DNA from: Plicaturopsis crispa FD-325 SS-3
Lineage: Eukaryota > Basidiomycota > Agaricomycetes > Amylocorticiales > Amylocorticiaceae
NCBI GenBank assembly: GCA_000827205.1
Contig: KN832589.1
Span: 1-40,814, forward strand
Direction: 5' to 3'
Length of the DNA stretch: 40,814 bases
A program made the position numbers and the translations under genes. The notes under the pieces are model-generated. The model was not told where the DNA came from. It was given only the letters and a program-made list of their open reading frames with translations, and did no database searches. Below, piece by piece: positions 11,489 through 40,313 of the stretch; the first letter of the stretch is position 1, and each line of letters starts with the position of its first letter.

Positions 11489-12237
11489 GTGTAATAATTC
11501 TCATGATATAACCCATCTAATAGCTGAAAATCTGCTGTGGTCAGGGTGGTCATGGGCATGTTTTTGGTGCCCATTCCCACTAGGCTGGGTGTCCCAGGTT
11601 TGGGAACATTTTTATGTGCCCACCTGCCCACTGGGCGCTTACCAGCGCCCATTCACAGCTGCCCACAAGACCACCTGCCCACAGGGTGCTAGGGGTCCTT
11701 TGCATCAAAACTGTTTCCTTCTCCAGGCCCTGCCTCTAGCCTTATTCGCCCACACCTACAGCGCAGCTACCATGCTGTCATCAATGGCGACAGCACGGAT
11801 GCAGATGCTGAGGATAACAATGCAGCCTGTTGCACGATGCCAGTGCTACCTGGCGGGAGTCGTGGTGGAGGCGATTCACTGGATGCACTGGGATTTCCAA
11901 CATTGATGCGCAAAGATGTGCTCCATGTAGTTGGGGTTCATTGTTTTGATTTGTTCCCTTGAGGGTGATCCGGAATGAGTTCTGTGCAGTATGTTGCTGA
12001 ATGCACTGGGATTTCCGACATTGAATCGGAAAGATGTGCTCCATATAGTTGGGGTTCATTGTTTTGATTTGTTCCCTTGAGGGTGATCTGGAATGAGTTC
12101 TGTGCAGTATGTTGCTGAATGCACTCGGATTTCCGACATTGAATCGGAAAGATGTGCTCCATATAGTTGGGGTTCATTGTTTTGATTTGTTCCCTCGAGG
12201 GTGATCCGGAATGAGTTGTGTGCTCCATGTAGTTGGG
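11457..12237 (+). repeat. Left terminal inverted repeat of KDZ element A
   Basis: Near-identical in inverted orientation to 32392-33162. It starts CACTTCAGTCACCCC and contains a run of TGCCCAC/GTGGGCA words (11620-11690). It ends with three 118-bp tandem units, where the right copy has about two. Confidence 0.9.
11884..12237 (+). repeat. Three 118-bp tandem units in the left terminal repeat
   Basis: Units start at 11884, 12002 and 12120 with TGCACTGGGATTTCC or a one-base variant, and contain GTTGGGGTTCATTGTTTTG. Spacing is 118 bases each time. The right terminal repeat has two units, so copy number differs between the ends. Such units inside terminal repeats are candidate transposase-binding repeats. 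Confidence 0.9.
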
Positions 12238-12874
12238 GTTCATGGTTTTAATTTGCCTCCTTCACACTCTTCGTCAAATGTGCATTACAACAATGCAGTG
12301 TGAACTACTAAGAGCATTCGGGCATCTGTTAAGGTAGAACAATTTCATATCAACTTTATACCTCACTTGAGAACTAAACTAAGAGAATCTGATTAATCCA
12401 GATAAGGCATGAGCTTCCCATACACCTAAAGGCCAACCCACAACTACTTGTGGGTAGCCCATGAACACCCAAGTGGACGACCCACAGACCCAAAGTGGTC
12501 CGCCCAAGCTAAGGAATTGCACTGAGTGGGCGGCCCACTAACACCTAAGTGGGCAACCCACACACCCAAAGTGGTCTGCCCAAGCTGAGGTATGGGCAGC
12601 CCATGCCGCCCACTAATACCTAAGTGGACGACCTACAGACTCAAAGTGGTCCGCCCAAACTGAGGAATTGCACTGAGTGGGCAGCCCACTAACATGCAAG
12701 TGGGCGACCCACAGACCCAAAGTGGTCTGCCCAAGCTGAGTAATTGCACCTGAGTGGGCGGCCCACTAACACTTCAGTGGGCGACCCACAGACACAAAGT
12801 GGCGCACAACGAAAAATGGTCAAGTACAAAAGTCGCATTCTGCTACAAACAACTACAGTACCAAGTACTACCTC
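12238..12874. repeat. Left subterminal palindrome array
   Basis: From about 12430 to 12800 the sequence repeats GTGGGCGGCCCACTAACAC-like palindromes alternating with AGTGGTCTGCCCAAGCTGAG-like spacers, in imperfect units. The same word family occurs in inverted orientation at 31430-32290. It lies between the terminal repeat and the transposase stop codon and has no gene. Binding of the transposase is an inference. Confidence 0.85.
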
Positions 12875-15800
12875 CTACTCAAACCTAGCACGCTTTCTAG
12901 ATGAACTACCAGTTAGTCTTACTGGTGAAGAGGATACATCATTGTCCAAGTTCAAACCCAATTTCTCAGTCGCAGTACGCCTGTCTGACCTATATGCATC
13001 TGTTAGTGCCGTCTCTTCTGCAATCTCCAGCAACTCAGCATCATCATCATCCTCACTCAACTCCCCAAGGCTATCATAATCCCCATCATCATCATCCGAC
13101 TCCAAGTAGCTTGCTGTCGCCTCCAGAGCAGCTGTATCCACCAGCGCAGCTAGAGACGGACCCCACGACTCGGGCATAGGGTACTTGCAAGGAAGTGGGC
13201 GTACTGCCCGCTCCCATGTCACACAAACCCGCCGGAGGTACTCCTCCCGTAGTTCAAGTTGGTACAACATGTCCCCACCATCGTTTACTGACTCTATTCA
13301 TGGTTAATGCCATGAAATATCTCAGATATCGATCAAACTCACTTGCATCTGCCTGTGCATCTTGTAGAACGGCCCACTCCTCCAGCATCCATTCCTGCAT
13401 ACTACACCTTTCCCCCTTGATACGCTCCTCCTCCTCAAGACACCGATCCAAGTCAAGACGAGCCCTGATACCGTCGCGAATGTTTTCATCACCCAGCCAT
13501 CCCAGAATCTCAGTCAACGTGCTATCTTCTTCGTCCAACCCGATGTCTTGCCAAATATCATCGTCAACGTCGAGCTTGAAGAGCCCCTCCCGAGCAATCG
13601 GTGTGGGTGCTATAGCTCCAGGGAGAGCGCGTCCCCGACGGATAAGCGAGACAAGCTGGTCACAGAGGGCATTGTAAGATTTTGCCAAGCTAAGTATGCC
13701 TGGCTCTCGTGTTCGAATTCGCTCCTTGGTGTGTGAACGAAGATTCTTTTCTGTCCCCTACAAGTTAGCATGGCCCACACTGTAACAGAATATAACGGAC
13801 CATTCACGGTGTGGCGATACTCCCGTTCGAGTCGCTCGAGCTCAAACTTGCGTTGCCGGAGGCGGTCTCGGATCCGCTTCTTCAGCGCACGAGCATTCAT
13901 GCGCACTCGTACATATTCGTTTGTGGCCAACTGCTGAAGGTTCGCGCGGTCCGTTGCTCCTAGTGCAGCAATCCGACCTCGAATATTGGCAGACAGTGCG
14001 CTCCGCCTCTGCCGGATAGAAGTCAACTCTTCAGCAATATCGTTAGCGTCCACATCTTGGTCGTACTCCCCCTGCAGTTGCTCTTCAAGCGCAGCCTCAG
14101 CCTCCCTGTACTCCAGTTCTGACTTCTGCATGGCTAGTATCTTGTCGACAGCAATCTTTCCTCTGTTCTTTGAACGACCTGCCGGATAATCAATTTAAGT
14201 AGATGGCAGCCACAGTAAAACTACACTTACGGGGCGCCGGCTTCGTTTGTTCATTGACCTGTGCATCCCACTCCCGACGAAGAACATCGTCAGAGATGCC
14301 ACAGTCCCGCAGTCGCTGTGTTGCGTCGGATTTCTTCCGTTGGCAATGCAGCCAACGGCGCGCGAGCCATAGGCCAAGCCCATGGAGGGACTTATCGTCG
14401 AGGTACTTGACCTGCGTGTCAAGTACAAATAACCGCTGATGATACTGCAGGGTGACCACTTAGCGTGTATCCCGAAAACACAATGAATCACACGACTTAC
14501 GCCAGATACCCGCAAAACAGGTATCAGTTTCTTGATCGCGCTCCAGAATCTTTCGCAACCCTCTCCATCTGTCAGGCCAAACCCTACGCATTTTCGAGGG
14601 TGGTAGATGATTTGGCAAGCCCATTGATGCCCGTACGCATGGAAGACAGCGATTCCGAAGGTAATACGGTCCCGGATGTCGTCCAGAAAGTTCCACTTCA
14701 CGCAGCTCCGATGCAGCTGGCACCCGATGTCGTATAAGATCCCCACCGTCATGGTTTGAGGCAAATGTTCGAATAGCCGTTTGATTAGGGCGAGCGCGTA
14801 GTACTGACGCTCGCCCGCAGTTGTCATGTTAATCAGCCAAAGGACGCGATCATGGCGACACAGAAGTCCCATGAGCCCGGTGTCGACAAAAAACTGCGTA
14901 GACGCAGCTTCGCGCTTCTCGTCGGCCGCCCCGAACGAGTCCTTGCATTCATCCAGCACAGAGTTGGGCACGCGAAGTCCCCTTTCGTAGGTATCCCCCT
15001 CCGAGTTCTCTGGAGCTGGCGGTCCGCGTCGTGTTTTAGTTGAACCCCGCGTCTTCTGCACGAAGTCCCGCATAGCCTCAACGTCCTCCTCGGGCATGAA
15101 AACCGTGTCGGGATGAGCCCGATGAGCATCGCGCTGACCGTCTTTCGTCTTCCTCCTCTTCTGCGTAAAGCATGCGTCCAAACACGCAATGGTATCGGCT
15201 CTGCATGATTCACCATCAGTTTCTGCCCCACGCGAATGAAAACAACTTACACTGCGTTAGGATCATGCCAATTCTTGCCTCCGAAGCACAGCGGACACCG
15301 ACCCCTAAGGTATTCACTTGGACGAGAGCACGATCCAGCTGTAGCTGTGTCCGACTCTCCAACTCCATCGCTGCGCGACGGCTCGCTGTCCGCACCATTG
15401 TCTTCTTCGTCCTCAATTTCCTCCACGGTAGCCCTGCGGCTGCGATCTTCGGCGGCAGGGCTTGGCTCTCGAGTCACCTCTCCCTCGTCCCTCCCCGCCA
15501 AGACCGCGCCGCGTCCTTCTTCCAGATAATTCCCCACCGAAGATCGACTGGCGTTGACTAGGGATGAATACCACACCAAGGCGTTATTGAATCGGCGTCG
15601 CATGGAGTTCTGTTCCGCTGTCAGAGACGCACAAAGGTGATAGGATGCAGCAAACTCACCCTGCTGTCTAATTTGTAGCCCCGACCATCAAGAAAAGTCT
15701 CCAGTGTATCGCACCAGGCAGTAGAATTGGGGGCCATCCTGACGAACAGGTTCGTGACGAACTCCAGCATGCGCAAATCTACAGCCAAGGTTGGCGCGTG

Positions 15801-16487
15801 CGGCGCGCAAGGGAATAATCCGCGATTCAGTAGTTGAGTTGCTGCTGGCCTACAAGGGCACACCACCAAGTCGATTTTCTGCAAGTCTAAGATATGTCAC
15901 CGATTAGTGCGAGCCCTTGTCACATCATATCATAAGAGGAACTCACTGTCGAAGCTCACGCAGGAAATGGACAATGTCCTTCGCTTTGCCGTGTCGTCGC
16001 AAGTACATTGGACCTGGGCCACAGTTGGCATGGTACGAAGATTTTCACTCCTACGCAAAAACCTTAAGTGCGGGTCTACTAGTCCTGGAATTATCTGCGT
16101 TGCCCAAGTGGTCCACTGCCGCTTTTTTTTCTCACCCGCCTTCACACGACCATCAACACCCCAGACCTCGGCGTTCAAGCCACTGGGTGAGACATCGGCC
16201 TGATCCCCCGCGATTGCGAGGAAAGGGTCGTCTGGTATGGAGGCCCCTGCGGAGTGTGTTCTCGCGAGGGGCAGCCGTGTCGTTTGTGTGAACACCCGAC
16301 CCGGAACGATCATGAGGCCAAGGCTCCGAGGGCGCGCAAGTCCTGCAGTCCCATAGCCTCGCCGTATTGCTGGAGACGAATCCTCCAGTAAGACCGGTCG
16401 AAACGGTGAGGATGTTGGCGCAGGGGAAGACGATTCCTCCTCCTTCCGACTGAGGCGGCGGCGGCCCTTAGGCGCACGAAACGACAT
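12875..16487 (-). CDS. KDZ transposase with CxC1-like cysteine cluster (copy A)
   Basis: Mobilises the element by an RNase H-fold transposition reaction in the nucleus. Eight exons join in frame: 16487-15947, 15886-15660, 15609-15251, 15200-14501, 14444-14231, 14178-13801, 13750-13343 and 13287-12875, giving 1079 residues. The start MSFRAPKG is shared with copy B and directly follows a TTTTCACAG acceptor. Order: basic disordered N-terminus; CxC1-type cysteine cluster (VQCTCDD, VVCPCRP, LFPCAP, then CPLCFGG); catalytic core with CLDACFTQKR (Asp about 384), LYDIGCQLHRS (Asp about 533) and GEGCERFWS (Glu about 592); a coiled-coil-like charged segment; the conserved KLDVDDDIWQDIGLD block; and an acidic then basic tail. 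All three acidic catalytic residues are present. Last gene of the minus-strand pair, 390 bp downstream of the companion gene. Confidence 0.95.
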
Positions 16488-16877
16488 CTGTGAAAATGCA
16501 GTGTAAGTTAGTGAAGGAATGGTGCAGAGGAGAGGACACCCACCCAGCATTACAAACACGCATCATCCACGCACCGTCTTGAATAGGCTATGCGCTTACC
16601 CACCCGCCCCTGGCAGGGCGCAGACCAAGAAAATAATGACATTCCGGTAATGTACTGTACAAGCCACTAAGTGGCCACACACGACGGACGCGACAAGAAA
16701 AAGCCCAGCGATGGGCGAAGCGGGGTAGAGGAATACAATAAAACAAGGTAGCAATGTCCGTGAACGGTGCGAGAGGCACTGCGTTCAACAACTTCCTTGT
16801 TCTCGGTCGAGAGGTGATAGATTGTGAGGGGTTCAGACTGCGATATGTATAACATGCAAAAAAAAAATGCGGCGGGA

Positions 16878-19359
16878 TCACGACTGCGTGTCGGCGCGCG
16901 GGAGGTAGTGGGGGAGGACGGGCGGCCGAGCGAACCAATTCCAGAAGGTCTGGCAGTAGAATTTTGCCATGACCCGCGCACGGAGACCAATCAGCGCAAG
17001 CGCGACCTCGAGTGGACCATCGTCGAGGAGGGACTGCTTGAACTCGAAGTTCTTGACCTCGTCAGGGGGATCCTTCCAGGCAAGCAAAATCTTTCGAAAG
17101 GCTTCGAGCGCCGCGACACGCCCAGGGGGATAGTCGCAGAGGACACCCACGTTGGCCTGGGGAAGCACATTCATCCCATACCGCCCACCGAAGATGATGG
17201 AAACCATATGGTCGCGGCCGGCGGGGTCACGCTCCCACTCTTGAGGAGCCGCGAGGCGATCGAGAGCGCGAACTTCGAAGCGGAAGCTATGCTCAAAGGC
17301 ATCCCAGACGACTTCGCGCATCGTTTGCCGTTCCGCGGCGCTGTCAAAGGCCTCAACGTCTTTGGCAAGCAGCTCCTGCTGCTGCCAATAGACTTTGTCG
17401 GGGCGTTTGTTCTTCATCTGCGCGCCGAACAAAGCTTCCGCCTGCTTGCGACAGTTGGCTGAGAATGTGTCGTTCCTGTGGACGCCGTCGTGGTCGAACC
17501 CTAGATATTCCCGCCAAATCTGGTTCGAGCCGCCGCTGTCACCTACCCCAGTGGCTGTCGTCATCCGGGCGAGCCAAGCGTGACGCCCTGCCAGCCAATT
17601 GACGAGGTATCGGCCCTGGTTCTTCGTCGTCACGAACAGGGCGGGCTCGGGCCAGCGGTAGCCAGCACCAACGCGTGGGCGGTTCGGCTCGAGTCGCTCC
17701 TTGCGCTTGTCCACGGCATCTAAGGCCTCCTTCCAGACCTGCGAGACCTCGGGCATGAAATTGCTTTCTGGATCAACCCACTTGTCGCGTTGCGGGACTG
17801 TTTGAACCGGGTCTGCCACGAAAGTATAAGTACAATTATCAATCCGCGGGCAATCCATGGTACTCACAAGGGTCCGTGGCCTTGGCGCGCTTCGCCGCAC
17901 TTCTCTGCGCACTTGTACGCTTGCGATGCTTCTTCGCAGCGCCAACGTCTCCGCCCTCTGACGCCGAGGTATCCGCTTGCGAAAACGCTGACAGACTTGA
18001 CGCCTGGGATGTCCGCGAGGGTGCGGCCGAGGCGTTTGAAGCCTGCGATGACCGCGATGGTCCCGCCGCTGAACTTGACGCGTAGCCAGACCTTGACGGT
18101 CCCGCGGAAGAGCTTGACGCGTAAGATGACCCTCGCGAGGGTCCCGTCGACGAGCTTGACGCTGGGTGGCGCTCCCGCGTTGTCTGTCTCTCGAACGCCG
18201 ATACCGCGGCCGTCAATTTGTGGTGGACGGCAACATTATGGCGATCAGGCTCAACGAGGAGCTGCGTCGCCGGCTTACTGATGTCACGCACAGTGTAGCG
18301 GTCGTAGATGCCTTCGACTTCGGGGGGTGGTGCAGGATACTCCTGCAAAGCGGTGACGGTGAGTTGGCCGACAAATATCGGCCTCCGAGAAAAGGCGTGG
18401 AAGGCGTCGCCACTAAGCCCCTCGTAGAAGATGTGCGTGGGCTCAGGCTCCCCTATTCCGTTGGCCGGCAAGCTTGTAACAATCCATCTCGGCGGGCGTT
18501 CTATCTCTACGACTGCCTCGACGTTGGGCCGGGCCCTGGTCGCCATCGCTGCTAAGAATTGATCCCTCGTTCGCACATACCAGACCGGGATACCAGCTCG
18601 AAGAAGTGCTTGTACATGTGAGGGCTCTGTGGTCCATGCACCGATAGCCCACTGGGCGACGGTCCCTGGCTCGTTGTCCCTGCCGACGCTGACGGCACGA
18701 GGTTCGTATTTTTCGAGGAGTAAAAGTCGGGCATGGAGATCTAACAGATTCCGCTCCATGTAGGCGAAATCGTTGACGATGTCCCGGAAGCAGTATGGAT
18801 TGTACTTGAGACGCGAGAGGACATTCCTGGCGTTGGTGAAACTGCCAGCCATGTGTCCGTCGCGAGGGTTCGTTTTCTCCCACTTCTCGACCTGCGCCCT
18901 GAGCTCGTTGAACAACGGCTCAATGCGTTCCACCATCTTCCTGTTCAGCAGGCCGATGTCAAAGAAAGCGGAGCCGGGAACGAGCTCGAAGTCGTATTCG
19001 CGCCTAGGCGTCAGCCAGAAAGCGGCGGGCCTGTCGTCAGCATCTCGCGGCTTGAGGGGAATGAGACACGAGTGGGCGAATTCCATGCTGTACCGCTGGG
19101 GCGTTTGTGTATAATCAGCGTAGCCGAAACGACCGTCTGCGCGGGTTTGAACACGGCATGTGCCAAGATTGAAGAAAGGAACATGGTCGACATTGGGCGA
19201 GGTGATGACAAAGTTCCCGGTGACTGCCAAGCACCGCGCGTCCGACCACGATATTGACTCTGAGTACGGTCGTGTTAGCGGGACAACGCACTGAGCACTC
19301 GTTGAAATGTGCGTACCATCACCCGGACGCGAATATAGGTCTGTAATTGTCGAAGTCAT
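16878..19359 (-). CDS. Conserved companion protein of the KDZ transposase (copy A), unknown function
   Basis: Three exons (19359-19317, 19259-17868, 17812-16878) join in frame to 789 residues. The ATG starts MTSTITDLYSRPGD. The same short first exon with the same splice phase occurs in copy B. The N-terminal domain has CLAVTGNFVITSPNVDHVPF and a Trp-rich segment. A Ser/Gly/Pro-rich linker with repeated AGPSRS-like words follows, then a basic stretch (KKHRKRTSAQRSAAKRAK) that looks like a nuclear signal. The C-terminal domain has RDKWVDPES, EPALFVTTKNQGRYLVNWL, VVWDAFEHSFRFE and FYCQTFWNWF. I recognise no enzyme motif. Conservation of both domains, but not of the linker, between the two copies indicates selection as a protein. 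It is probably a transposition partner or regulator; that is inference. The leader contains the hairpin introns. Confidence 0.8.
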
Positions 19360-19394: not shown

Positions 19395-19585
19395 CTGTCG
19401 GTAATGAGGTAAGTACCGATGAAAGACGACGATAAACACGTATTGGTGCGCTAGCGACCGACTCCAAGTCCAGGTCGCAAGTACGCTGGGAGCGACTCTA
19501 AGTCGAGCTCCCCGGGCGCGACTCGAAGTCCAGCGCCCGTTCACCATCACGCGAGGGGAAAGGAGGAAATAAAACGATTTCTCAC
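19395..19585 (-). promoter_or_regulatory. 5'-UTR intron with triple-hairpin array (minus leader, nearest the ATG)
   Basis: GTGAGAAATC donor at 19585 and a GACAG acceptor ending at 19395, 35 bases upstream of the ATG. The hairpin array spans 19454-19538. In the sense strand the first outer stem is GGGCGC/GCGCCC, the second GGGAG/CTCCC and the third GCGACC/GGTCGC. Each is followed by an inner stem GACT...AGTC with a three-base loop. Confidence 0.8.
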
Positions 19586-19686
19586 CGTTTGAAAAACAGG
19601 ATCTGAGCTCTCCTACGTCGAGAAATCCAAAAACGAGGGGTGCGCGCGCGAGGCAGACTTTAAGCGCGCGTTAAGCGCCCAAGCGG

Positions 19687-19880
19687 CTGGGGAAAGATCG
19701 TTGTCAGCAACAACGCGCAGACAGGAGCAATGGGCGAGAGCGCGCGCGCTGCGACCGACGCGGAGTCCAGGTCGCAGCGAGGCGGAAGCGACTCTTAGTC
19801 GAGCTTCCTGGGCGCGACTCGAAGTCCAGCGCCCGTTCACCATCGCACGAGGGGAAAGAAGAAGTAAAAAGATTTCTCAC
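19687..19880 (-). promoter_or_regulatory. 5'-UTR intron with triple-hairpin array (minus leader, middle)
   Basis: GTGAGAAATC donor at 19880 and a TTCCCCAG acceptor. The array is at 19750-19834, with outer stems GGGCGC/GCGCCC, GGAAG/CTTCC and TGCGACC/GGTCGCA. The intron and the following 101-bp exon (19586-19686) are almost identical, inverted, to the plus-strand pair at 21879-22174. Confidence 0.8.
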
Positions 19881-20091
19881 CGTTTCAAACACAAGATCCG
19901 TCCGTGCCCTCCCACGTCGAGAAATCCCCTCTGCGGACGCGTTGCACGCAGCGACGCAACTGTAAACGGAGATGAGCGACAAGCGACGAAGTACACAACT
20001 CAAGAGATGAACTTACGCAAGCACGCGTCTGCGTCTGCCCGTCCGTTGCTAAGGAAGAATGAGGACAAGCGCGCGTTAAGCGCTCAAGCGG

Positions 20092-20300
20092 CTAGAGGGA
20101 GATTGTCGTCAGCAACAGCGCGCAGCGAGAAACCATGGGCGAAAGCGGGCGCGCTACGACCGACTCCAAGTCCAGGTCATAGTAAGATGGGAGCGACTCC
20201 AAGTCGAGCTCCCCGGGTGCGACTCGAAGTCCAGCGCCCGTTTCGCGCGCGCGCGCGTTCGACAACGAAGGGAGGGGAGGAAGAGAAGATGGCAACTTAC
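20092..20300 (-). promoter_or_regulatory. 5'-UTR intron with triple-hairpin array (minus leader, first)
   Basis: GTAAGTTGCC donor at 20300 and a CCCTCTAG acceptor. The array is at 20154-20239, with the third outer stem CTATGACC/GGTCGTAG: one pair is G-U here and A-U or C-G elsewhere, so pairing is kept in RNA. The first hairpin has one mismatch. The intron is the inverted counterpart of 21583-21777. Confidence 0.8.
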
Positions 20301-21582
20301 TTAGATTATGCAGAGCGTCGTCCTGCTGTATCCTTCCAGCTAGCAGGACGGTGACGCGCCGTGGTGAGAGGAAAGGCAGAGCGAGGAAGAATTTGGTGGG
20401 GAGGTGGTGGTGGTGGTGGTGGTATGTGGAAGAAAACATACCGCCCGGCAAACGCCCAAAAATCCCCAAAGTCAGTTCCGACTTCCGACGCGGTGGCTGC
20501 AAACCCTTGAACTTTCGTACGCACCTCCCATTCCAGCGGTCTAGTGATCAATATACGAGTGTATAAAAATTGTAATACTTGTCTGTTGAAGGCTTAGAAT
20601 GGTCCTCCATTTTTTCCGATTTTTATGACAAGTATACGGCCCACGGGAGGCGATAATGTACGCGTCTGCGATGACTGAACACGAAGTTCATCGTTCTTCG
20701 TGGTCTGCAGACTTTGGCGTCTCATATATTCTCTGTATGAAAATTCTCATAGTGCTGATAATGCATATGAACCGGATCCCCATGGTCGTTGATTTTTTTT
20801 TGCCTTGTTTCCAGAGCCAGAGGGCATACCGATGCCACTTTGAACCAGACTTGGACGCGCAACATTCGACTTTCAGATCACCGCGCTGAAGCATGCCTGT
20901 CGACTTTCCCTGCTTCCCCCTTCCCCAGCACAGAGCCATATATTCCGACACTCCGTACGCAGGTAACACTGTGCCTTGTGAAGCCATGTTTTTTTTTGCT
21001 GTGCCCAAATCGTTTTAATAAAGGAATAACTCTCTGTATCAACTCATAACCTGAACCAAAGTCGCACTTTTGGGTGCTGGACAGGCTCTACGAGGTCCCC
21101 TCTCAATGTATAAAATCAGAGAAAATCATAGTCGTCCTTTTTCATGAATCTACGCGTCTGTACGATGTATCCTAATATTTAGAGAGCTGTGATGAAAGAT
21201 TTACAGGCTGGAATGCGGAAAGCGCGCAGAAGTCCGTCATATCGGCCTTCACTGTCAAACCGCTCCTTATAGGGACATAGATAAAATCTGATAAATTGCA
21301 CGATTGCTCCAGCTGCACTGAACTATTATTCCTGATTTTATTCCATTTTAATACCGCCCGGATGTCCCGCAGAGTCCTTGCTCGACGGCGAAAGGGTCCC
21401 AGCCACCGCGTCGGAAGTCGGAACTGCCTTGCGGATTCTGGCGACTCGAAATGCGTTCCTCCTCTCTCTTACCATCACCATCCCCACCGTCGACGTCCTT
21501 TGGCGTCGACGGTTCACTTCTCCTTACCGTCTTCCCTGTTGTCCCTCCTCAAAAGTGGTCCGAAGGATCTCTCTTCCTCCTG
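20301..21582. promoter_or_regulatory. Central divergent promoter and first leader exons of element A
   Basis: The region between the minus and plus transcription units has no supported coding frame. A 27-base leader block is perfectly inverted between 20473-20499 (minus) and 21400-21426 (plus); it begins CAGCCACCGCGTCGGAAGTC. A (GGT)n run lies at 20403-20422. TATA-like words occur at about 20562 (TATAAAAA) and 21109 (TATAAAAT), both on the plus strand. Transcription start points cannot be fixed from the sequence. Confidence 0.6.
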
Positions 21583-21777
21583 GTAAGTCCTTTTGCTTTT
21601 CTTTGCGAGCGCGTGTGCGCACGCCAGACAGGCGCTGGACTTCGAGTCGCGCCCGGGGAGCTCGACTTAGAGTCGCTCCCATCTTACTACGACCTGGACT
21701 TGGAGTCGGTCGTAGCGCGCCCGCTTTCGCCCATGGTTTCTCGCTGCGCGCTGTTGCTGACGACAATCTCCCTCCAG
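21583..21777 (+). promoter_or_regulatory. 5'-UTR intron with triple-hairpin array (plus leader, first)
   Basis: GTAAGTCCTT donor and a CCTCCAG acceptor. The array is at 21631-21715. The outer stems are GGCGC/GCGCC, GGGAG/CTCCC and CTACGACC/GGTCGTAG. The inner stems are GACT/AGTC or CGACT/AGTCG with loops TCG, TAG and TGG. Confidence 0.85.
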
Positions 21778-21878
21778 CCGCTTGAGCGCTTAATGCGCGC
21801 TTAATGGCTGCATAGCGCGCGCACCGCTTGTTACTGGATTTCTCGACGTGGGAGGGCACGGATCTTGTGTTTGAAACG

Positions 21879-22073
21879 GTGAGAATTGCTTTTTCTTCTC
21901 ATTTTCCCCTCGTGCGATGGTGAACGGGCGCTGGACTTCGAGTCGCGCCCAGGAAGCTCGACTAAGAGTCGCTTCCGCCTCGCTGCGACCTGGACTCCGC
22001 GTCGGTCGCAGCGCGCGCGCTCTCGCCCATTGCTCCTGTCTGCGCGTTGTTGCTGACAACGATCTTTCCCCAG
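21879..22073 (+). promoter_or_regulatory. 5'-UTR intron with triple-hairpin array (plus leader, second)
   Basis: GTGAGAATTG donor after a 101-bp exon (21778-21878), and a TTCCCCAG acceptor. The array is at 21926-22010, with outer stems GGGCGC/GCGCCC, GGAAG/CTTCC and TGCGACC/GGTCGCA. The third inner stem is shortened to GAC/GTC. Confidence 0.85.
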
Positions 22074-22174
22074 CCGCTTGGGCGCTTAACGCGCGCTTAA
22101 AGTCTGCCTCGCGCGCGCCACGCTCGTTATTGGATTTCTCGACGTAGGAGGGCTCAGATCTTGTTTTTCAAACG

Positions 22175-22368
22175 GTGAGAAATCGTTTTATTTCCTCCTT
22201 TCCCCTCGCGCGATGGTGAACGGGCGCTGGACTTCGAGTCGCGCCCAGGAAGCTCGACTAAGAGTCGCTTCCGCCTCGCTGCGACCTGGACTCGGAGTCG
22301 GTCGCAGCGCGCGCGCTTTCGCCCATTGTTCCTCTCCGCGCGCTCTTGCTAACGACATTGTTCCTCAG
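22175..22368 (+). promoter_or_regulatory. 5'-UTR intron with triple-hairpin array (plus leader, third)
   Basis: GTGAGAAATC donor after a second 101-bp exon (22074-22174), and a TTCCTCAG acceptor. The array is at 22222-22306. The third hairpin has the fullest inner stem, GACTC/GAGTC around a single base. Confidence 0.85.
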
Positions 22369-23096
22369 CTCCACTGAGTGCTCACAACCTTGGCCCTCGA
22401 CGACACGGCTGGTCCTCCACTTTTGGTTGCTCATCGATCCATGGCGCCGACTTCACTCGTTTCATGGGCCCTCTCACTTTCTCATCTCCAATTTGTGTTT
22501 GCTCCTTATTTTGTTTTGCGCGCACGGGCACTCTACGTACTTTTCTTCCTTGGGAGTCTCAGGATCTGAACCCACACGACCGGGGCCGCCCTGAAGCAGT
22601 GTGGCTCACTGAATTGTGACACGACAGTTGCCAAGGCGCTGTCCCCCTGCGAGCGTACGGGGTGCGAGTTGGGGTGTCCTGCTGTGGGATACTCAGCTGG
22701 CATCACATCGATCTTCGTTGGTTGACTTCGTCGTCGATGTAGCCCTCCGGAACGTGGCAGACGACTTGAGACGTAACCGCCCTGCCGTGAGAGTCGGTGG
22801 GTGCGAACCCCGGTCTCTCTGAATCCTCAATTGCCTCTTGGTCTTGGAGCGTTGAAACTTTGCCGTCAGTTTGACTTGCGTAGTTTATTTTTTTGTATTT
22901 TTTTTCTGTTCTATTTGGGCGCCCATCGGGCTGTTGTTTTGCGTCCCCCTCGGCTCGCCAGAACCGTATCAGAGGCACTCGGTCAGTATAAATGCGTTCT
23001 CGTCCGCATTTGTTGTCTGACCCTCTGTTCTCCTTTGTCCAGGTCGAGTTGTACGGCTCTCTTAGCGTGTATCGTGAAGACGACTGAACTTCATCG
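22369..23096 (+). other. Long leader exon or exons of the accessory gene
   Basis: This stretch lies between the third and fourth hairpin introns and has no long plus-strand frame with recognisable content. It may hold further introns that I cannot place. A B-box-like word (GGGTGCGAACCCC) near 22800 is not part of a convincing tRNA. Confidence 0.4.
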
Positions 23097-23285
23097 GTGA
23101 GAATTTGTTTTACTTGTTCGTCTACCCTCGCGCGATGGTGAACGGGCGCTGGACTTGGAGTCGCGCCCGGGAAGCTCGACTTGGAGTCGCTTCCGCCATG
23201 CTGCGACCTGGACTCGGAGTCGGTCGCAGCGCGAGCGCACTTCCCCTATAATCCAGTTCATCGTCCTGACCAGTCTTCCCCCCAG
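23097..23285 (+). promoter_or_regulatory. 5'-UTR intron with triple-hairpin array (plus leader, fourth)
   Basis: GTGAGAATTT donor and a CCCCCCAG acceptor two bases before the accessory gene's ATG. The array is at 23144-23228, with outer stems GGGCGC/GCGCCC, GGAAG/CTTCC and TGCGACC/GGTCGCA. Loops are TGG, TGG and a single base. Confidence 0.85.
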
Positions 23286-23287
23286 GA

Positions 23288-26200
23288 ATGGCCAAGTCGA
23301 AGTCCCGCAAGGCGTCCTCGCCTGCTTTACCTGCGGCTCGTCTAACCCGGGCTGCTGCTGCTGCTGTGGCGGCTGCAGAGGAGGCTGGTTCCGACATCCC
23401 GGAGGTGGCTAAGGGTGTAGGGAGGAAGCGGGGGGGCCGCAAACCTGTTGCGACACCTGCGAAGTCTGTCCCCGACATCGAGACGGAGCCTGCCGCCTCA
23501 GATGATGGGGAAGAAGAGCCAACTCCGGTCCCCAGAAAGAGCTCGCGCAAGAAGGGTGCGCAGGACGACACACGAGTCTCTCCACGACGACAAGCTGGTT
23601 CTAGGCGGAAGGGTCACTCGCGCGAAGATGAGGACGAGGAGATCCTAGAGGATGAAGAGGACATGGCCTCTGGTGAGGAGGACACACCCCGTCCTGCTCC
23701 TAGGAAGCGTGCGCGGACGAAGGCGCAAGAGGGTGAGAAGACCGATGAGGAGAACAGCCACCCCGCCGCCGCTCCGAGGCACACCAGTCCCTGTACCTGA
23801 ATTATAATACATCGTGGCTACGAGCACACACTACGTTACAATACATCAGGCAACCGCCTTATGGCAACGCATTATAATACATTCCGCCAGCCAAATGCCA
23901 GCCACTTTCAGCCACCTCAGCCACTCGAGCAATCCTGGTGAATCCCTCAGCCACAGCGACCCTCTAGCTTACTAATCATGCAATTTTTTCGGCTCACCGG
24001 CTTTGCACCTCTGCGCACGGACCTCCTTCCGCACCTCTGGCCTCGAAATTCCAGCCACATTCTCACATAGGGCATCAATTTTTTTTCGCATTTTTTTGCA
24101 TTTTTTCGTTGACTTGCCTCCTCTGTGTGTCATGGCCAGCAAATATATTTTATTTGTATCTATATTACTGAGAAACCCACGAAGGGGGTATACACGGAAA
24201 AGTAAGTGCGGGGGGGGAGGGGTGTGTGAAACGGCAAGCGCGTGGTGGAACGGCGGGCGCGGGGGCGTCGACACGGGGACGGCGAGAGCAGGGACGGCGA
24301 GCGCGACGAGCGCGGGGAGGACGTCCGCGGGGATCGTCTAGCGCGGGGAGGGCGAGCGCGTGGACGGCAGGCGCGTGGACGGCAGGCGCGGGGAGGGCGT
24401 CCGCGGGGATCGTCGAGTGCGGGGACGGCGAGTGCGTGGACGGCAGGCGCGGGGAAGGCGTCCGCGGAGATCGTCGAGCGCGGGGAGGGCGAGCGCGGGT
24501 ACGTCGAGCGCGGGGGCGTCGTTCGCCGCCCGGGTGCATCTGCCGCGTGGCACCCTGCTACGCTGGGCCTACGGTGCCAGCGTCAAACGGCGGGGCAAGG
24601 TGCCCGCCGCTCTCAGTGGGCCCCTCCCCCACTGCCCTGCCGTGTCGCTTGCCCACGGGACCAGCAGGGACGGCGTCGAATGACGGGCTCGAAGCCCGCC
24701 GTTCTCCGTCGTACCCGCTGCCCATGCCCTCCCTCCCTCCCTTCCCTCCCTCGTCTCCCCTGTGTTTCCCGGCTGACGGGCACGCGGCGCTCGTCGTTCG
24801 CTGCTGTCCACGACGGCGCGTGTTGCGGGCGCCCTGCGTCGCGGTGTTCGGTTTGGCGTGGTGGGAGCGTGCCGGGGCCGCTGCGGTCGTGGCGGTGGTG
24901 TGAGGGGCGCGGTGCGCCAGCACTTGGCGCGCGGCCTCCACCTACGCGATGCCGAGGTCAGGGGAGTGTGTTGAAGGTGGTGGGGAGGAAGAGGGGCGGG
25001 GGAGCGCGGAGGTGGGCGCGCGGAGGTGGGCGTCGTTGGGATACGCCGTGACGTGGCCGGGACGAGGGAGTGGGGTGGGGGTGGCGATGGCGGTGGGAAC
25101 TCCGAGAGCGGCCTGGTGGCTGCGGTGTGCGCGCTGCGCGTGAATGCGCGCGGGCGCGGTCGTTGTCAAGCGGTGGGCTGGCTGCAAGAGCGTTGTCAGC
25201 GCTGAAATAGCGGGTAAAAAAAGAAAAAAAGACTTACAAAAGAAATTTAACATACGAAAGACACCCCTCGCGAGAGTGCGAGGGGTGGGGCGTCGTTGTG
25301 GGCGAGCAGCGAGGCGGGGGAGGTAGACGACGACGACGAGGGAGAAAACGAACATCGACGACGCGTTCGTCGATTTCGAACTCCGATGGCCCGTGCGCTC
25401 GGACGCCGCAAATGCTTTCAGCAGCGTCCGCGCCCTTCAAATAAATTGCTTTAAATTCTGTAAATTCATAGCATGCTCGTATGTACTATTGAAACGTCCT
25501 CACAACGTGTCGAATATTTTGAATCCATAGGAGCAAGTGAATATAATGAAATGAGCTCGCTTACTGCTGATTTCAACCTCATTTTGTATATGGGCTTACA
25601 CCCCCTCATTATTTTATTCTGAGAAAATCATATTCGTGTTCCCAGACGTTGAAAACCCCGGGAACAAATTTACAGAGGGAGACGAGAGTGTGTGGCCAGT
25701 ACAGGAGCCTGCAAAGCTCAGAAACGCGCCATACAGCGCATTCCGGCTATTTCGGAGGTTCCGCGGTGCTCGCGTACAGTGAGCTCTGTGTATTTGCACT
25801 GACCCTAGCATTGCGCACACATTCTGTATGCTTCCCGTAAATTTAGTAGGGCTCATTGTACATACTTAGATGTCTATTCTAATTTTTTTTGGAGTAAACA
25901 AAGCCCTGGTTATTCGGGGTGAAATTGCCCAACTGTTGCAAACTGTTGCAAACTTTTGGCAGGGCTTTCTGTTACTGACACATAACCATCGGTCAGAAAA
26001 ATATGAAATTTGGTACACACTATCTACTGGTACATGTGAACGCCTTGCGAATTTTTCAGCTCTCAAAACGAGCCGGGGGATGCCCAGAAAAAGGTTCGGC
26101 GTCGTCGCGGCCAACATTCGGGTTTCGCCGGCGGACTTTGAATTTGGCCAACGCGTCGTTCGTGTTCGGTTTCCCTTTTCTCTTCCTCGTCGTTGTCGTC

Positions 26201-29200
26201 GTCGCAGCTCGTCGACACACGGCACGACGACGCCCCACCCCCTGCCTCCTCGCGGGGGGTGTTTTTAGTATTCCCTCTCGTTCTGTAAGTTTTTCTTTCT
26301 TTTTCAACCGCTACCTGCAACGCTAATCCACTTTTTTCCAGCCACGTCAGTCGAGCACAACCTCACCCTGTGCGTACAAGCCACCCACGTCCACCACCAC
26401 CACGGCAGCCCGGCACCGCGCTGGCCAGCGCTGTCGCGCACCCCGGCAACCCGCATAGCAACGCGCACCCAGCCTCGTCGCTACCCCCACCCCAGCCTCG
26501 TCACGCACCCCGGCGTCATCACGCACCCCGACGACTCGCTTAGCATCACCCAGGCTAGCGTCCGGTGGGCTCGAAACACCCCGCCCCGCTGTTCGCCCAC
26601 CGGGCGAATCCCATCCCATCCACATTCGCCATGTCCGCCCCATGTCCGCCGAGCATGGCGCGGCGCCCTGCCGCGCGCAGCGCTATGAGTCACCGGGGCC
26701 AGGCTAGCACAACGGTGGGGGAAGGGTAGAGAATGACGAGGAGCGGCCGCGCGGGTGCCCGTGCCCCTCGCGTGCGCCACGTCCACCTCCGTGCCCGTCG
26801 CCGTCTGCCCGCGCGCAGCCCCGCCTCACGTCCCTTCCCCCCACATCCCCTGTGCTCGCTGCCGGCGCGCTGAGCCTGGCGCGCATGCACGCCGGTGCCA
26901 GCGTCTCGCTTCACAAGCCACCAGCCCCCTCCCTCGCTGCCGCTGCACTCACGCGGGGCTCCGCAACGCTCCGCTCTGTCTGCATCGGCAGAATTTCGCG
27001 CATCAACGCGGGAGCGCTGCCCGCCACCCACGCGCTTCCGACGCGCATTTGACGGAGTGGGATGGAGGGAGCAAGGTGCCGCGACAGCCGCGGCTGGGCG
27101 CGTTCCGGCGTACGCGGGCCCCTGCCCCCTGCCCTCCACATTCAACCGTGCCCGCTGTGTCAGACCTAGGCACTACGGGTGCGCGCGATGGGGCTGAGCA
27201 GGGGTAGGCCGAGTATGCCGGTGTGCGTGCCCCCGCCCCTGCGCTCGTCACCCCGCATTCGACCGCGCCCGCTGTGCCAGACCCAGGCACTACGGACGCG
27301 TAAGATGCGGTCGAGCAGGTGCAGGGTGCATGCAGGGTGCCCGGGCTGGGTGCCCCCCCATTGCTTTTTTTCGCGATGATTTTAGGTTTGCTAGGCCTGC
27401 TTACGTAACCAAGACCACCGTAGCACGAATTCCCCATGTACTAGAATAGATTTTATAATTTTTCCTGCCCGATTTGTGCTCGAAACAGGGCAAAGTACTG
27501 GCAAATTTTTTTTTGGTGCCAATTTGAGTCTGCCCTAAGATGTCGGAATCAATAGTGGTAGGGGTCGAGAAAATCTACAGTGTCACGTGAGCCAGCCCAA
27601 GGCTTTCAGCTACCCGGCGAAATCTGGTAGGTCGCATTATAATGTGAACTTGGCAGGCATGGGCATTGCCCAATGTATTGTAATGCGGTGTGTGATCACA
27701 GCCAAGTACATTATAATAAATCTACAGGGACGCCTGCGAGGCAGGCTACTCGCTCGGTGGTTCGTGAGACCACCGACACCCCCACGGGTTTTAGAGAAGC
27801 TCGGAGGGCTGTTCACGGTTCGAAGGGCGTCCGCGGGAGGAAAAACAATGTGATAGTCGAAATCCCGGTATGTAAATCGTTGCGTCTCGAGGAATGCCAG
27901 TGAGCTGAACCGTTGTGTGTGTGTAGCCCAGCGCCTACTCGACACCCACCACGCGTGACCGGCGCTTTTTGGCCTCTGGTGCCAACGAATCTATATCAGG
28001 CGCGCTGCCTCCCTCGTCTCCGGTTGTTGGACCTGGCCCGAGCTCAGACGACGAGTTCCCTCACGTCGCAGAGCAGGGTGGCGAAGATCGCGCGGCCCAC
28101 GTACACCAGTCCTCGCCCATGTTCAACTTGAACATTGTTCAGCGCGCCAGGGCTCGAGCTCTCAAAGAAAAAAAGAAGCAAGGGGAGGATAGCTCGGGGG
28201 TGGATGCTCAGTCGCCGGCGGACGGAGAGGAGAGCGAGGACGATGAAGCCGGCAGCAACTACTCGCAAGGTGTGAAGGAACGGGCTGCAAAGGATCTCAA
28301 GGCATTGAAGAATGGGGACGAAGTATATCGCACTGAAGACGAAGACGCGGAGGACGAGGAGGAGTTTATCCAGGAGATTTCGAAGGCCCAGAACACGTAT
28401 CAAGGCAAAAGAACCATCGCCAACAAGTCGGTCGCGGACGATGGTAGCGAAGAACGCGCGGTGTCCCCGTCCCCGGCCAAAAAACGAGCAAGGAAGGGGA
28501 AACAGAAGGCCTCCACACCCGCGCATGCACCCCCCGACGACGACAATTTGGATCAAGACGAAGTCGAGCTGCTGGGTGACGCCGATAACGACGACGGTGA
28601 CTGGGAAAAAGTATCCGGCCCGCTGCCCAACGCTGCAAAGGAAGAGGCGCGTGAGCTCGGCCGCCAATTCAATCTTCAAGTCACGGCCCTCGCACGCAAA
28701 TACAGCAAGGGGAGGAAGTCGCTGATGAAGCATACGGGGGTCACCCTGCAGGAGACGCGTGCGGCGAATCCATTCAACAAGTATTGTACGTGGTACAAGC
28801 ACAAACATCCCATGGCGCCGGGTGGTACGTTCATAGCATCTCTTGTCTGCCGTGCATAACTGACTTATAATTGTTTCAGACGACGACAAGCGTTATAAGC
28901 AAGAAATCTGGGTCAAGTACCACGCCCTCATCGACGATCTCGACGAAAAGGGGCGGGAAGAGGCCTTGCGGCCCATACTACAGTGGGTCACCGATCTGCA
29001 GAACGGGAAGGTCGAAGGCATCGATGGTCGCAGGAGTGCGTCGTCGATGATGCAGGCTGGGATGGAGCAGCTCGAAGACTTGGTACGTTACACGTTTATG
29101 TGGCATGACACCGACTCACATAGGAGGATACAGTGCCGCGTGTACGAGACGCACGACATCACCATCCTCGGCGCAATCATCTCTAAAGGGCGCGACCCTG

Positions 29201-31072
29201 CCGCTCGTCAAATGTCGAAAATCTTCGGTACTGACCAGGCCGTGATCGAGTTGGTTGCGGCCAACAAAATCAATCTCAATCGCCTGTTGGATCGGGTGCA
29301 AAATTGCATCATGTGAGTACTTTGTGTTGACTGTCGCACCTCCTTGCTTATACGTTGCCTAAGCTGTCAAGACTACAGCATGGAGGGTGCAGAGCTGCCG
29401 CTTCCCAAAGACTGGGTTGTGGATAACGATCCACAGAAGGACAAGGGGAAAGGAAAAGACAAAGAGAAAGACAACGGCGACATGAAAAAGCGCGATTTGC
29501 TTCGAGGATCGGTCAAAGCTGACTTCCTCGAACTACTCCGTAAGCAATGTTGTTTCTTACCTTTGGGATCTCGCTAATTCATCGTCACAGAGGACTTCGT
29601 GCCAAGCCAGACGACAGTGCCTTGGATCTCCTGGGCGAACTTTGCATTTTTGCATCAGCTTGCCTTGCGGAACTATCCGCACGGGATCCCTGTCCTCGGG
29701 CAGGGATTCAATCTCAGGAACTTCACCACTATGCAGCTCGAGACGCTGAGGGACGCGTTGCATGCGGAGGGGGATGGGAAGCTCGAAGTGGTGAGGTGGG
29801 ACGAAGGTGCGTGCTCGCGTTGTTGAAGGCAGTAATCAAACTAATGAATGAATAGCCGACATAGCGTTGGCTACAAAGAAGGACAAGTCCCTGGGCCGCG
29901 TAGGTGTTGTCATTGATTGCAGAGGCAACAGCCTCCGCCGCGTCATCGATAGCAACTTGTTCACCAAATCTCGGGAGGACGCTGGGGAGGCAAAGTCCCA
30001 AGCAGGTGGCAAGAAACGGAGGAGTGGGGGGGACGATGCTGGGGACAGGCGTCCCGTCATGCCCTTGCCCCGCCGTGGTGGGGATGCAGACGGTAACCCA
30101 GCGCCGCTCAAGCGCAAACGGGTTGACGAGTTTGCTGCACCCCCGCGCAGCGCTGGCTCTGGCTCTGAGCCACAGCTGCACGCCGGAACCACAGCTCGAA
30201 GGCTGCTCGACTCTGCGCCGGATGCCACGCGTGGCCCTGCCAATGCGCCCGACCACCATCCTTCTCAAAATCGTCGGGACCAAGATGAGCGTCCCGCGCA
30301 TCGCATCGTTGCATCGCGCGACCGCCAGCCTCAGCGAGTTCAAGACTCAATGGGTCCTCCTCCCACCGATCGGCGCCGTGTTGCGGCGCCCAGTGTGCAG
30401 CCTCCCGCGCAACGCGTGCTGTCCGGCCCTGGAGTCCCGCCAGCGCCGCGTGGTGAAGAGGCAGTGCGGCCACGCACCGAGGTTTCCGTTCAAGGTGGCT
30501 CGCGACGGGTCATGGATATCGAAGCACGTCGCGAGCAGCGTCGAATTGCCCGCGAAAACATGGACGCCTTCATCGAGGATTTTGGCCGACCGTCTCCCCC
30601 TCCCCCTCCGGCTCGCCGTGCATTTGCCGTTAGGCAGAGAAGTGTTGGGCCTGCGGACAGCGATGCTGACCTCCCAGAGGGTCCGGCGGCTATGCGCCGC
30701 TCGGGTGGGTTTACAGACGCACACGGAAGATACTTCGTGCCCGCACCCGCACCTGTTCGACGGAGTGCGGGGGAATATGTGCAGCAGCAGCGTGACGCGG
30801 GTGCAAGCCGACGTCGAGTGTCGGCACCGTCGCGCCGCCCTAACTTGCACATCTCCGCGGAGGCTGGCCCTGGCCCTTCGTCTCTGGCAGGCGGCTCGAG
30901 GTCACGGTCACAGTCGGGTGGGCTGCAGCCCATACACGAGTACGAGCGTTATCGCCGCCGCGATGGGCCGTACGACGACGAAGATATCGATGACGACATG
31001 GAGCTTGCCCCCAACGTGCCGCGCCAGTGGGATTACATCGACGACGAGGACGATGATACTTACATGGACTAA
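23288..31072 (+). CDS. Large nuclear-type accessory protein of the KDZ element, interrupted by a transposon
   Basis: Outside the insertion, exons 23288-23781, 27744-27867, 27927-28824, 28880-29082, 29134-29312, 29379-29539, 29591-29806 and 29856-31072 add up to 1163 codons plus a stop with no frame break. The N-terminus has basic and acidic blocks with an AT-hook-like word (GVGRKRGGRKP) and acidic runs, then PAKKRARKGKQKAS, a likely nuclear signal. The middle domain has NPFNKYCTWYKHKHP, EIWVKYHALIDDL, HDITILGAIISKG and KINLNRLLDRVQNC. Another conserved-looking block follows (TTVPWISWANFAFLHQLAL, then GFNLRNFTTMQL). The last 400 residues are disordered, Arg/Pro-rich, with an acidic end. I recognise no enzyme fold; the middle part might be a DNA-binding domain. 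In this copy the insertion gives a stop after about 170 residues. Confidence 0.75.
23801..23895 (+). repeat. Subterminal repeats, left end of the 3955-bp insertion
   Basis: Three copies of TTATAATACAT or TTACAATACAT lie about 36 bases apart. Matching words occur in inverted orientation at 27635-27715 in the right end. They are likely part of the element's terminal recognition region. Confidence 0.75.
24231..24520 (+). repeat. GC-rich minisatellite inside the insertion
   Basis: Irregular repeats of GGCGAGCGCG, GTGGACGGCAGGCGC and GGGGATCGTCGAG-like words fill about 290 bases. Long open frames cross it in several frames on both strands, which is expected of such composition and is not taken as coding. 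Confidence 0.8.
25205..26325. repeat. Mirrored leader-like inverted repeat inside the insertion
   Basis: The arm at 25205-25420 (read on the minus strand) and the arm at 26140-26325 (plus strand) are diverged inverted copies. Both contain CGACGACGCCCCACCCC, a GGGGGGTGT- or GGGGTGT-like word and then a GTAAGTTT/GTAAGTCT donor followed by a pyrimidine run. Good acceptors follow (CTTGCAG near 25187, TTTTCCAG near 26340). The 700-bp centre is AT-richer. This resembles two divergent transcripts from one promoter, like the host element. Confidence 0.6.
26341..27320 (+). other. GC-rich body of the insertion with a duplicated unit
   Basis: Pro/Arg/Ala-rich frames are open on both strands but none shows a domain. 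A unit of about 63 bases with GCCCGCTGTGCCAGACC-like core occurs at 27139-27201 and again at 27256-27318, 117 bases apart. I see no transposase remnant. Confidence 0.6.
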
Positions 31073-33162: not shown

Positions 33163-33395
33163 CCCACATACAGAATGACTCTTTTGGGTGGCCCACACAG
33201 GGCCTTGTCCCCCTGTGGGCCACCCATATAACATCAATTCATGGGCCTGTTCTCAACTTTTGTAAATGTTGACTAGTTGGAATGGGCCACCCTTTCCCAT
33301 GTTTTTGTCTAATTACATCAAACTTGTTTTTTGATCTTGCTTTATCATGATTCATCTAAGTACAAGTGTTCATATTGGAAAAAAGGCTACTCTCA

Positions 33396-37115: not shown

Positions 37116-37432
37116 CCTACGTGAGTGAACGAACGTTAGCAGAGCTATACGACGTACACGGCAAAACTCACCTATAATTTCATCCACGCTGTAGCCTTGC
37201 GGCTGACACGCGTGTATGAGAACTCACGTGCGCCCCACCGCGCAAAAGGCAAACCCGTTTTATTAAGTTTATATGCGGTAAAATGACAAGATATGTGAAG
37301 TGCGGAGGTGCGGATACATAACCCCCAGCAACAGGTAGACAGCAAGACACGCATCATGGAAACGACGACCGCGAAGACAGTGAAAGTGTTCGCACCGATA
37401 CCAACAGAAGTAAAGTAGGTCAAGAAAATTAC

Positions 37433-39679: not shown

Positions 39680-39709
39680 CGTGTACTAGTTACGGACGGT
39701 ATTGAATGC

Positions 39710-39906
39710 CTTTGAATAGAGAGTTAGTACGATTGGCGTGCGAGGATACACCACACAACGCGGCGCTGCGACCGACTCGCAGTCAAGTCGCATGCTGGCA
39801 GGAGGGCCTCGAAGTCACCTCCACGAGCGCGACTCGCAGTCAGCGCCCTATACCAGCCGCACACACGCATGAGGAGAACCGGGGAGCACAACATCACGAA
39901 ACTCAC
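39710..39906 (-). promoter_or_regulatory. 5'-UTR intron with triple-hairpin array (copy B, nearest the ATG)
   Basis: GTGAGTTTCG donor at 39906, TACTAAC branch site and TTCAAAG acceptor, 30 bases upstream of the ATG. The array is at 39767-39846. In the sense strand: GCGC-T-GACT-GCG-AGTC-GCGC, then a weaker GGAGG/CCTCC hairpin, then TGCGAC-TT-GACT-GCG-AGTC-(G)-GTCGCA. Confidence 0.8.
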
Positions 39907-40106
39907 CGAAAAGCGCCCGCACAAATGTCCTGTTCCGCAGAAACCAGAAAGAGAAACGGTGATAATTTGCGACGGTAAGACCTACAAAGGCCTATCAGTC
40001 TACTGCGCCTACAGCATATGATATGATACTCACCTGCACCAAAGAAAATGAAAACACCACACGACTCCGAGGTAACCACAATCGACACTGCGAAAGCGCT
40101 GAGAAT

Positions 40107-40313
40107 CTAGACAACGTGGGGTCAGCGACATCTTCTAGCAAAAGATGGCAACGAAAGAAAAAGCACACACGGCGACCGACTCGTAGTCAGGTCGCCTGCT
40201 GGCGTGAAGGACTCGAAGTCTCTTCCCCGAGCGCGACACGAAGTCAGCGCTCGGTGCCAGGTGGTCGTGTAAAGTGAAGGTAGTTGGGAACGAAGAATGG
40301 AATCAGTACTCAC
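40107..40313 (-). promoter_or_regulatory. 5'-UTR intron with triple-hairpin array (copy B, upstream)
   Basis: GTGAGTACTG donor at 40313 and a TTGTCTAG acceptor. The array is at 40171-40252. Outer stems are GAGCGC/GCGCTC, GAAG/CTTC and GGCGACC/GGTCGCC. Compared with copy A, paired bases in the first and second stems have changed together. Confidence 0.8.

What the first reader, a model, noticed from the sequence alone, without database searches (positions are those of the whole stretch)
19395..23285. Every 5'-UTR intron of the KDZ element carries the same three-hairpin array
Seven introns of about 190-210 bp in element A (three in the minus leader, four in the plus leader) and two more in copy B each contain three consecutive hairpins in about 80-86 bases. 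The arrays always lie in the sense direction of the gene they precede, on both strands. That orientation dependence fits an RNA structure better than simple DNA-binding palindromes. I know of no description of such intronic arrays in KDZ elements.
Basis: seen in the sequence. Interest (0 to 1): 0.9.

Follow-up and report, generated by a model that had tools for sequence, protein, structure and literature searches.

The report
Triple-hairpin arrays in transposon leader introns
Nine predicted introns just upstream of accessory genes in two related fungal-type KDZ transposons each carry the same set of three short hairpins, better conserved than the neighbouring protein-coding DNA, which suggests a working control element whose function has not been tested.

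Summary
Confirmed: nine predicted leader introns (seven in element A, two in B; 188-209 nt) each hold three hairpins in 81-85 nt, in the sense direction. The 27 hairpins share one asymmetric design: 6-bp arm, 1-2 nt bulge on the 5' side, GACT-NNG-NGKC, matching arm. GACT and the third loop base G are invariant (27 of 27); the arms vary with compensation (6 of 32 pairs changed on both sides, 0 of 500 shuffles). Between A and B only the array stands clear of background in the leaders (70-79% identity); tested coding exons are 54-59% identical. A covariance model from A alone finds B's two arrays and nothing comparable in the stretches searched.

Corrections: 'every' leader intron is wrong (two predicted leader introns lack an array, as does the likely KDZ leader intron); the arrays precede accessory genes, not the transposase; the shared sense orientation is largely inherited, A's two leaders being inverted duplicates. 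Stability and wobble counts do not separate RNA from single-stranded DNA.

Best reading: a protein-binding RNA hairpin array acting on leader-intron splicing (0.45). Fungal genomes could not be searched; nine literature searches listed no description.

The parts
20092..20300 (-). M1: predicted leader intron of gene X in A (209 nt); array 20156-20239
   Evidence: donor, CTGAC branch, TAG acceptor; hairpins
19687..19880 (-). M2: predicted leader intron (194 nt); array 19751-19834
19395..19585 (-). M3: predicted leader intron (191 nt); array 19454-19538; acceptor placed by eye (CGACAG), no CTRAY branch site found
21583..21777 (+). P1: predicted leader intron of gene Y (195 nt); array 21630-21713
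21879..22073 (+). P2: predicted leader intron (195 nt); array 21926-22009
22175..22368 (+). P3: predicted leader intron (194 nt); array 22222-22305
23097..23285 (+). P4: predicted leader intron (189 nt) ending 2 nt before the ATG of gene Y; array 23144-23227
40107..40313 (-). B1: predicted leader intron of gene X in copy B (207 nt); array 40172-40252
39719..39906 (-). B2: predicted leader intron in copy B (about 188 nt, AAG acceptor set by eye; an alternative TAG acceptor lies further on); array 39768-39848
19960..20016 (-). predicted leader intron of A without an array (57 nt)
39930..40033 (-). predicted leader intron of B without an array (104 nt)
16881..19359 (-). gene X of A (multi-exon, no Pfam match), downstream of the M leader
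   Evidence: homologous to B 37436-39632; aligned parts 46% and 52% aa identity
37436..39679 (-). gene X of B, downstream of the B leader
23288..23797 (+). first exon of gene Y of A (MAKSKSRK..., basic and acidic stretches), downstream of the P leader
   Evidence: open frame
12900..16487 (-). KDZ transposase gene of A (approximate limits; PF18758 in the frame 14195-15256, CxC1 in 15624-15896); no array in its leader

Best explanation
The arrays are a cis-acting structured RNA module in the pre-mRNA leaders of the element's two accessory genes. Each array offers three copies of one hairpin (5' bulge, GAC stem, loop U-N-N-G-N, GUC) on arms that only need to pair. A protein, encoded by the element or by the host, most likely binds the bulge and loop and thereby sets how efficiently the enlarged leader introns are spliced; a retained intron would add upstream start codons and lower expression of X and Y together. 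Shown here: the hairpin design, its maintenance by compensation, its excess conservation, and its near-constant place between donor and branch site. Inferred: transcription, splicing, the binding protein and the effect on expression.
For: Six of 32 pairs changed on both sides, 0 of 500 shuffles; slides of 1-3 columns give 0 such pairs. RNAalifold, given only the alignment, predicts the same 32 pairs. Thirteen distinct arm pairs form 74 of 78 pairs against at most 68 in 20,000 shuffles. Arms pair well only with a 2-nt 5' bulge in A (124 of 126) and 1-nt in B (34 of 36); the seven other offsets tried give 35-63 and 13-17. GACT and loop-end G 27 of 27. A-to-B identity: array 70-79%, gene X codons 54% and 59%, leader flanks at or near shuffled background. 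The A-only model scores B1 and B2 at 52.3 and 48.0 bits; next best 17.4 in 23300-40814 and 10.8 in 1-19300. Array introns 188-209 nt; six coding introns that I picked by eye from 13 listed candidates as fitting exon ends are 47-60 nt. All nine introns hold an ATG.
Against: No transcript data. Of the five measures, one (further standard pair types) does not exceed its shuffles (339 of 500 reach it). Intron folding energies are ordinary (sense z -0.7 to -2.9 against a background of mean -0.4, sd 1.4) and antisense is as stable; P4 alone gives z -1.37. Mean probability of the designed pairs is 0.73 sense and 0.71 antisense, with 6 of 27 hairpins under 0.3 in the full sense intron. Wobble counts do not single out RNA. 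Effective sampling is two element families in one window, with A's arrays homogenised. No RNA-binding domain was recognised in the X and Y pieces scanned; one X piece had no PDB sequence match. ATGs in introns of this length are not remarkable.
Confidence: 0.45

Rival explanations
1. DNA-level element: intron-borne regulatory sites or extruded cruciforms bound by a DNA-binding protein such as the element's own transposase or gene Y product.
For: The GACT/AGTC core is palindromic, both strands fold equally well, and the arrays flank a divergent promoter region. The same element has other palindrome fields near its ends.
Against: A dimer site does not explain arms that differ between hairpins yet stay complementary, a bulge always on one side, or a loop-end G without the mirror C (C at loop position 1 in only 4 of 27). 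The arrays lie between donor and branch site at similar distances.
Confidence: 0.2
2. Passive repeat: tandem duplication and gene conversion of a 296-nt exon-intron unit, or intron multiplication of the introner-like kind, with template-switch correction keeping the palindromes perfect; no function.
For: The 296-nt units and 94% inverted arms show recent duplication. In P4 the similarity to P2 and P3 starts 2 nt before the donor site. Template switching can produce both-sided changes in one event (recalled).
Against: It does not explain why only the array stands out between B1 and B2 (77%) and between A and B, above coding identity, nor why sequence constancy sits in GACTNNG while the arms vary.
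Confidence: 0.2
3. Intron-encoded small RNA: the array is processed from the excised intron into a stable non-coding RNA.
For: Compact, structured and sense-oriented in introns.
Against: No Rfam match at gathering score in the window or at E up to 1 in 19395-23285. Hairpins of about 10 bp are short for Dicer-type products (recalled).
Confidence: 0.1
4. The arrays are exon or protein-coding sequence.
For: An ATG just before the array opens frames of 38-76 codons in five of the seven A introns.
Against: A and B differ by a 1-nt bulge indel in each of the three hairpins, which shifts the frame each time; splice signals bracket the arrays.
Confidence: 0.03

Closest known systems
Intronic autoregulatory RNA structures of fungal genes (RPL7B zipper stem and Rpl7 site, PMC12311795, abstract and outline seen; RPS13 intron and lysyl-tRNA synthetase first-intron/5' UTR structures, PMC8216456, passages seen)
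   Same: A conserved folded element inside an intron, shown (RPL7B) or proposed to control its own gene
   Different: Those are single structures in host genes; here one module is repeated in up to four introns per leader, in front of two genes of a transposon
Fungal introner-like elements and sister stwintrons (PMC8469720, passages seen)
   Same: Several similar introns with predicted structure
   Different: The passages describe symmetry or inverted repeats spanning the intron, at new positions in many genes; here the structure is an internal array, the intron ends are not complementary in 8 of 9, and P1-P3 and M2 were duplicated with exon sequence
TPP riboswitch in fungal 5' UTR introns (PMC8216456, passage seen)
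   Same: Structured element in a leader intron that controls splicing
   Different: No Rfam match; three like hairpins rather than one ligand pocket
Phage coat-protein operator hairpins (MS2/PP7; recalled, from no call)
   Same: Short stem with a 5' bulge and a sequence-specific loop
   Different: Different sequence; no binding protein known here
KDZ (Kyakuja-Dileera-Zisupton) transposons (PMC12730594, outline, passages and section 3.2.1 seen)
   Same: KDZ transposase with CxC1; element ends CA..TG as given there for Kyakuja
   Different: The word hairpin does not occur in that paper's main text, and its two Laccaria Kyakuja families have no terminal inverted repeats; element A has long ones

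Membership tests
KDZ transposon (element A) | KDZ transposase domain | tested here: met
   PF18758 E 3.2e-60 in the frame 14195-15256 minus; CxC1 PF18802 E 4.3e-07
KDZ transposon (element A) | target site duplication of 7-8 bp | tested here: inconclusive
   none seen by eye beside 11457 and 33162; the true ends could differ, so only domain content is claimed
Conserved structured RNA element | base pairs kept through changes on both sides | tested here: met
   6 of 32 pairs, 0 of 500 shuffles, 8 distinct rows; one of five measures not above shuffles
Conserved structured RNA element | transcribed and folded as RNA | not testable with these tools
   no RNA-seq or probing data
Spliceosomal introns | donor, branch site and acceptor on one strand | tested here: met
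   8 of 9 on the sense strand (B2 acceptor ambiguous; M3 without a branch match), 0 of 9 antisense
Introner-like element | similarity begins and ends at the splice sites, at unrelated positions | tested here: inconclusive
   P4 similarity starts next to the donor but ends after the array; P1-P3 were duplicated with exon sequence
Introner-like element | inverted repeat joining the two intron ends | tested here: not met
   first against last 55 nt: 8 of 9 no better than shuffles (44 or more of 300 reach the score), M1 weak (7 of 300)
Rfam families, riboswitches included | covariance-model match | tested here: not met
   0 matches

The most novel reading that the evidence does not exclude
A DNA transposon carries its own RNA operator system: arrays of one bulged hairpin in successive leader introns of two divergent accessory genes, read by one RNA-binding protein (possibly encoded by the element) that sets their expression together by counting hairpins through intron splicing.
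Probability: 0.25. Interest if true: 0.8.

Novelty: new variant of a known kind. Interest (0 to 1): 0.6.

Why it matters
If true, these large KDZ elements regulate accessory genes at the RNA level with a repeated structured module, which I did not find described. It gives a compact, searchable signature (a 5' bulge starting with T in 26 of 27, then GACTNNGNGKC, on complementary arms, three per intron) that makes the question testable in any fungal genome and transcriptome.

Tried and rejected
All 166 were scored for arm pairing; of the 12 best shown most are plain palindromes without a bulge. The only blastn match to the leaders was L166 (E 0.004, 75 nt, on the P4 array), which is a direct repeat of an evenly spaced core, apparently coding, and not a hairpin array by eye. 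Two stricter hairpin patterns gave 1 and 0 stretches; the 1 (L287) holds a single core and is about what chance gives (my estimate). KDZ protein and gene X searches in viral contigs found no relatives. No fungal collection was on hand and no whole genome is held for this window.

The gene X structure model had mean pLDDT 37 and was not used. The 27-hairpin alignment by MAFFT put the gap in the arm, so it was not used; anchors on the core. In one search the B2 acceptor was set 13 nt too far, which blurs the edges of its last two segments. A sequence-only A model also finds B1 and B2 (36.9 and 44.2 bits), so the homology does not depend on the structure.

Orientation as proof of RNA was rejected because of shared descent; a thermodynamic strand preference was rejected for lack of a difference.

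Full report
What is there. The window holds two related KDZ elements. Element A has a KDZ transposase (PF18758, E 3.2e-60) with a CxC1 cysteine cluster, flanked by long inverted repeats (11449-11741 against 33170-32879, 96%). Copy B repeats the minus-strand genes about 20.5 kb further on and is cut by the window end. The arrays lie upstream of two accessory genes, X (minus, in A and B) and Y (plus, A only in view). The transposase appears to be a separate gene beginning MSFRAPKG in both copies; just before its start codon in A lies an intron-like acceptor, and no array. That the host is a basidiomycete is recalled from the biology of KDZ elements, not tested.

The observation. Nine arrays, 27 hairpins, all read in the sense direction. 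GACTNNNAGTC occurs 23 times in the window, all inside arrays; the other four hairpins deviate by one base, each time in the 3' half. The covariance model of all nine finds the nine at 82-122 bits; the other 31 matches up to E 10 reach at most 23.3 bits, and several are the antisense of arrays. Splice signals bracket the arrays on the sense strand only: donor in 9 of 9 at 44-61 nt, CTRAC branch in 8 of 9 at 33-40 nt. M3's acceptor was placed by eye and B2's is ambiguous. Six coding introns, picked by eye from 13 candidates as fitting exon ends, measure 47-60 nt; the seven candidates set aside were 73-249 nt. On that pick the array introns are three to four times longer. The word 'every' fails: introns 20016-19960 and 40033-39930 on the minus strand have no array.

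More than a palindrome. Each hairpin is a 6-bp arm, a bulge on the 5' side (TG 14, TC 7, T 5, A 1), GACT, loop NNG, then AGTC (23) or a one-base variant (4), then the matching arm. Testing offsets, A pairs 124 of 126 with a 2-nt 5' bulge and B 34 of 36 with a 1-nt 5' bulge; the offset was chosen as the best, but the runners-up are 63 and 17. Thirteen distinct arm pairs make 74 of 78 pairs, not reached in 20,000 shuffles (maximum 68). On the array alignment 6 of 32 pairs changed on both sides, 0 of 500 shuffles; percentage paired, cells changed and covariation score also exceed every shuffle, the number of further pair types does not (339 of 500 reach it). RNAalifold returns the same structure unprompted. 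These controls ignore relatedness, and A's arrays are close copies, so the numbers are not probabilities. Of the six pairs, four rest on copy B (11-33, 40-56 and 69-96 on B1 alone, 41-55 on B1 and B2) and two vary within A (38-58 and 70-94).

Constraint. In the seven compared pairs that involve B (B1-B2 and six A-B pairs), exons and both intron parts lie at 45-59% identity, where shuffles average 45-53% and reach 53-60%; the array lies at 70-77%. A few flank values touch or slightly pass the shuffle maximum (for example B2-P3 5' intron part, 59% against 55%). Over the hairpin columns the 14 A-B pairs are 70-79% identical, while gene X codons are 54% and 59% identical with third positions at 38-41%. 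A model from A's seven arrays finds B1 and B2 (52.3 and 48.0 bits) and nothing else above 17.4 bits in the two stretches searched, 23300-40814 and 1-19300. Either selection keeps the array, or the array moved between families as a cassette; the consistent 1-nt against 2-nt bulge argues against a recent move.

RNA or DNA. A symmetric DNA site does not predict the one-sided bulge, the invariant loop-end G (27 of 27) without its mirror C (4 of 27), or varying but complementary arms. However, predicted stability is the same on both strands, wobble counts are 3 against 2, 6 of 27 hairpins have pairing probability under 0.3 in the full sense intron, and the shared orientation is largely inherited through an inverted duplication of the leader (94% over 481 columns). 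RNA is preferred because of the place in introns and the single-strand design, not because of orientation or energy.

Mechanism. The constancy of bulge, GACT and loop G, with freer arms, looks like a protein-recognised hairpin repeated for cooperative binding. Its place between donor and branch site suggests control of splicing; retained introns would bring ATGs into the leader (9 of 9). RPL7B is a worked precedent for a protein acting on an intron structure (PMC12311795, abstract). The binding protein is unknown: the X and Y pieces scanned gave no Pfam match and the X model failed. An intron-end inverted repeat of the introner-like kind is absent in 8 of 9 and weak in M1.

Novelty. Nine searches of the held papers listed no report of hairpin arrays in KDZ leader introns; KDZ with intron and hairpin gave one classification paper (listing seen only). 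Four papers were opened in part. Subscription journals are mostly missing from that library.

Noticed in passing
12527-12765 and 31455-32202: Fields of another palindrome, TGGGCNGCCCA (19 exact copies, all here), near both ends of element A; the four sampled windows with the strongest folding signals lie over them (z -4.5 to -6.4). Possibly transposase-binding sites.
   Followed up: partly
11457 and 33162: Inverted-repeat ends read CAC...GTG, but no 7-8 bp target duplication is seen beside them, so the true ends or the history of A are unclear.
   Followed up: partly
20461-20499 and 21400-21437: A 39-nt inverted repeat (92%) just upstream of the two leaders, probably a shared promoter element of the divergent genes.
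   Followed up: no
40160-40260 minus: In B1 a helix CTGGC/GCCAG encloses the first two hairpins in the predicted fold; by eye similar pairing is possible in B2 and P4.
   Followed up: no
22987-22993: TATAAAT upstream of P4, which may mark a second, nearer promoter for gene Y.
   Followed up: no
24231-24526: GC-rich degenerate repeats in the gene Y region; the best non-array match of the A-only model overlaps their edge (24523-24618, 17.4 bits).
   Followed up: no
16881-19359 and 37436-39679 minus: Gene X, conserved beside the KDZ gene in both copies (46% and 52% aa identity in the two parts aligned), without a Pfam match; one part also without a PDB sequence match.
   Followed up: partly
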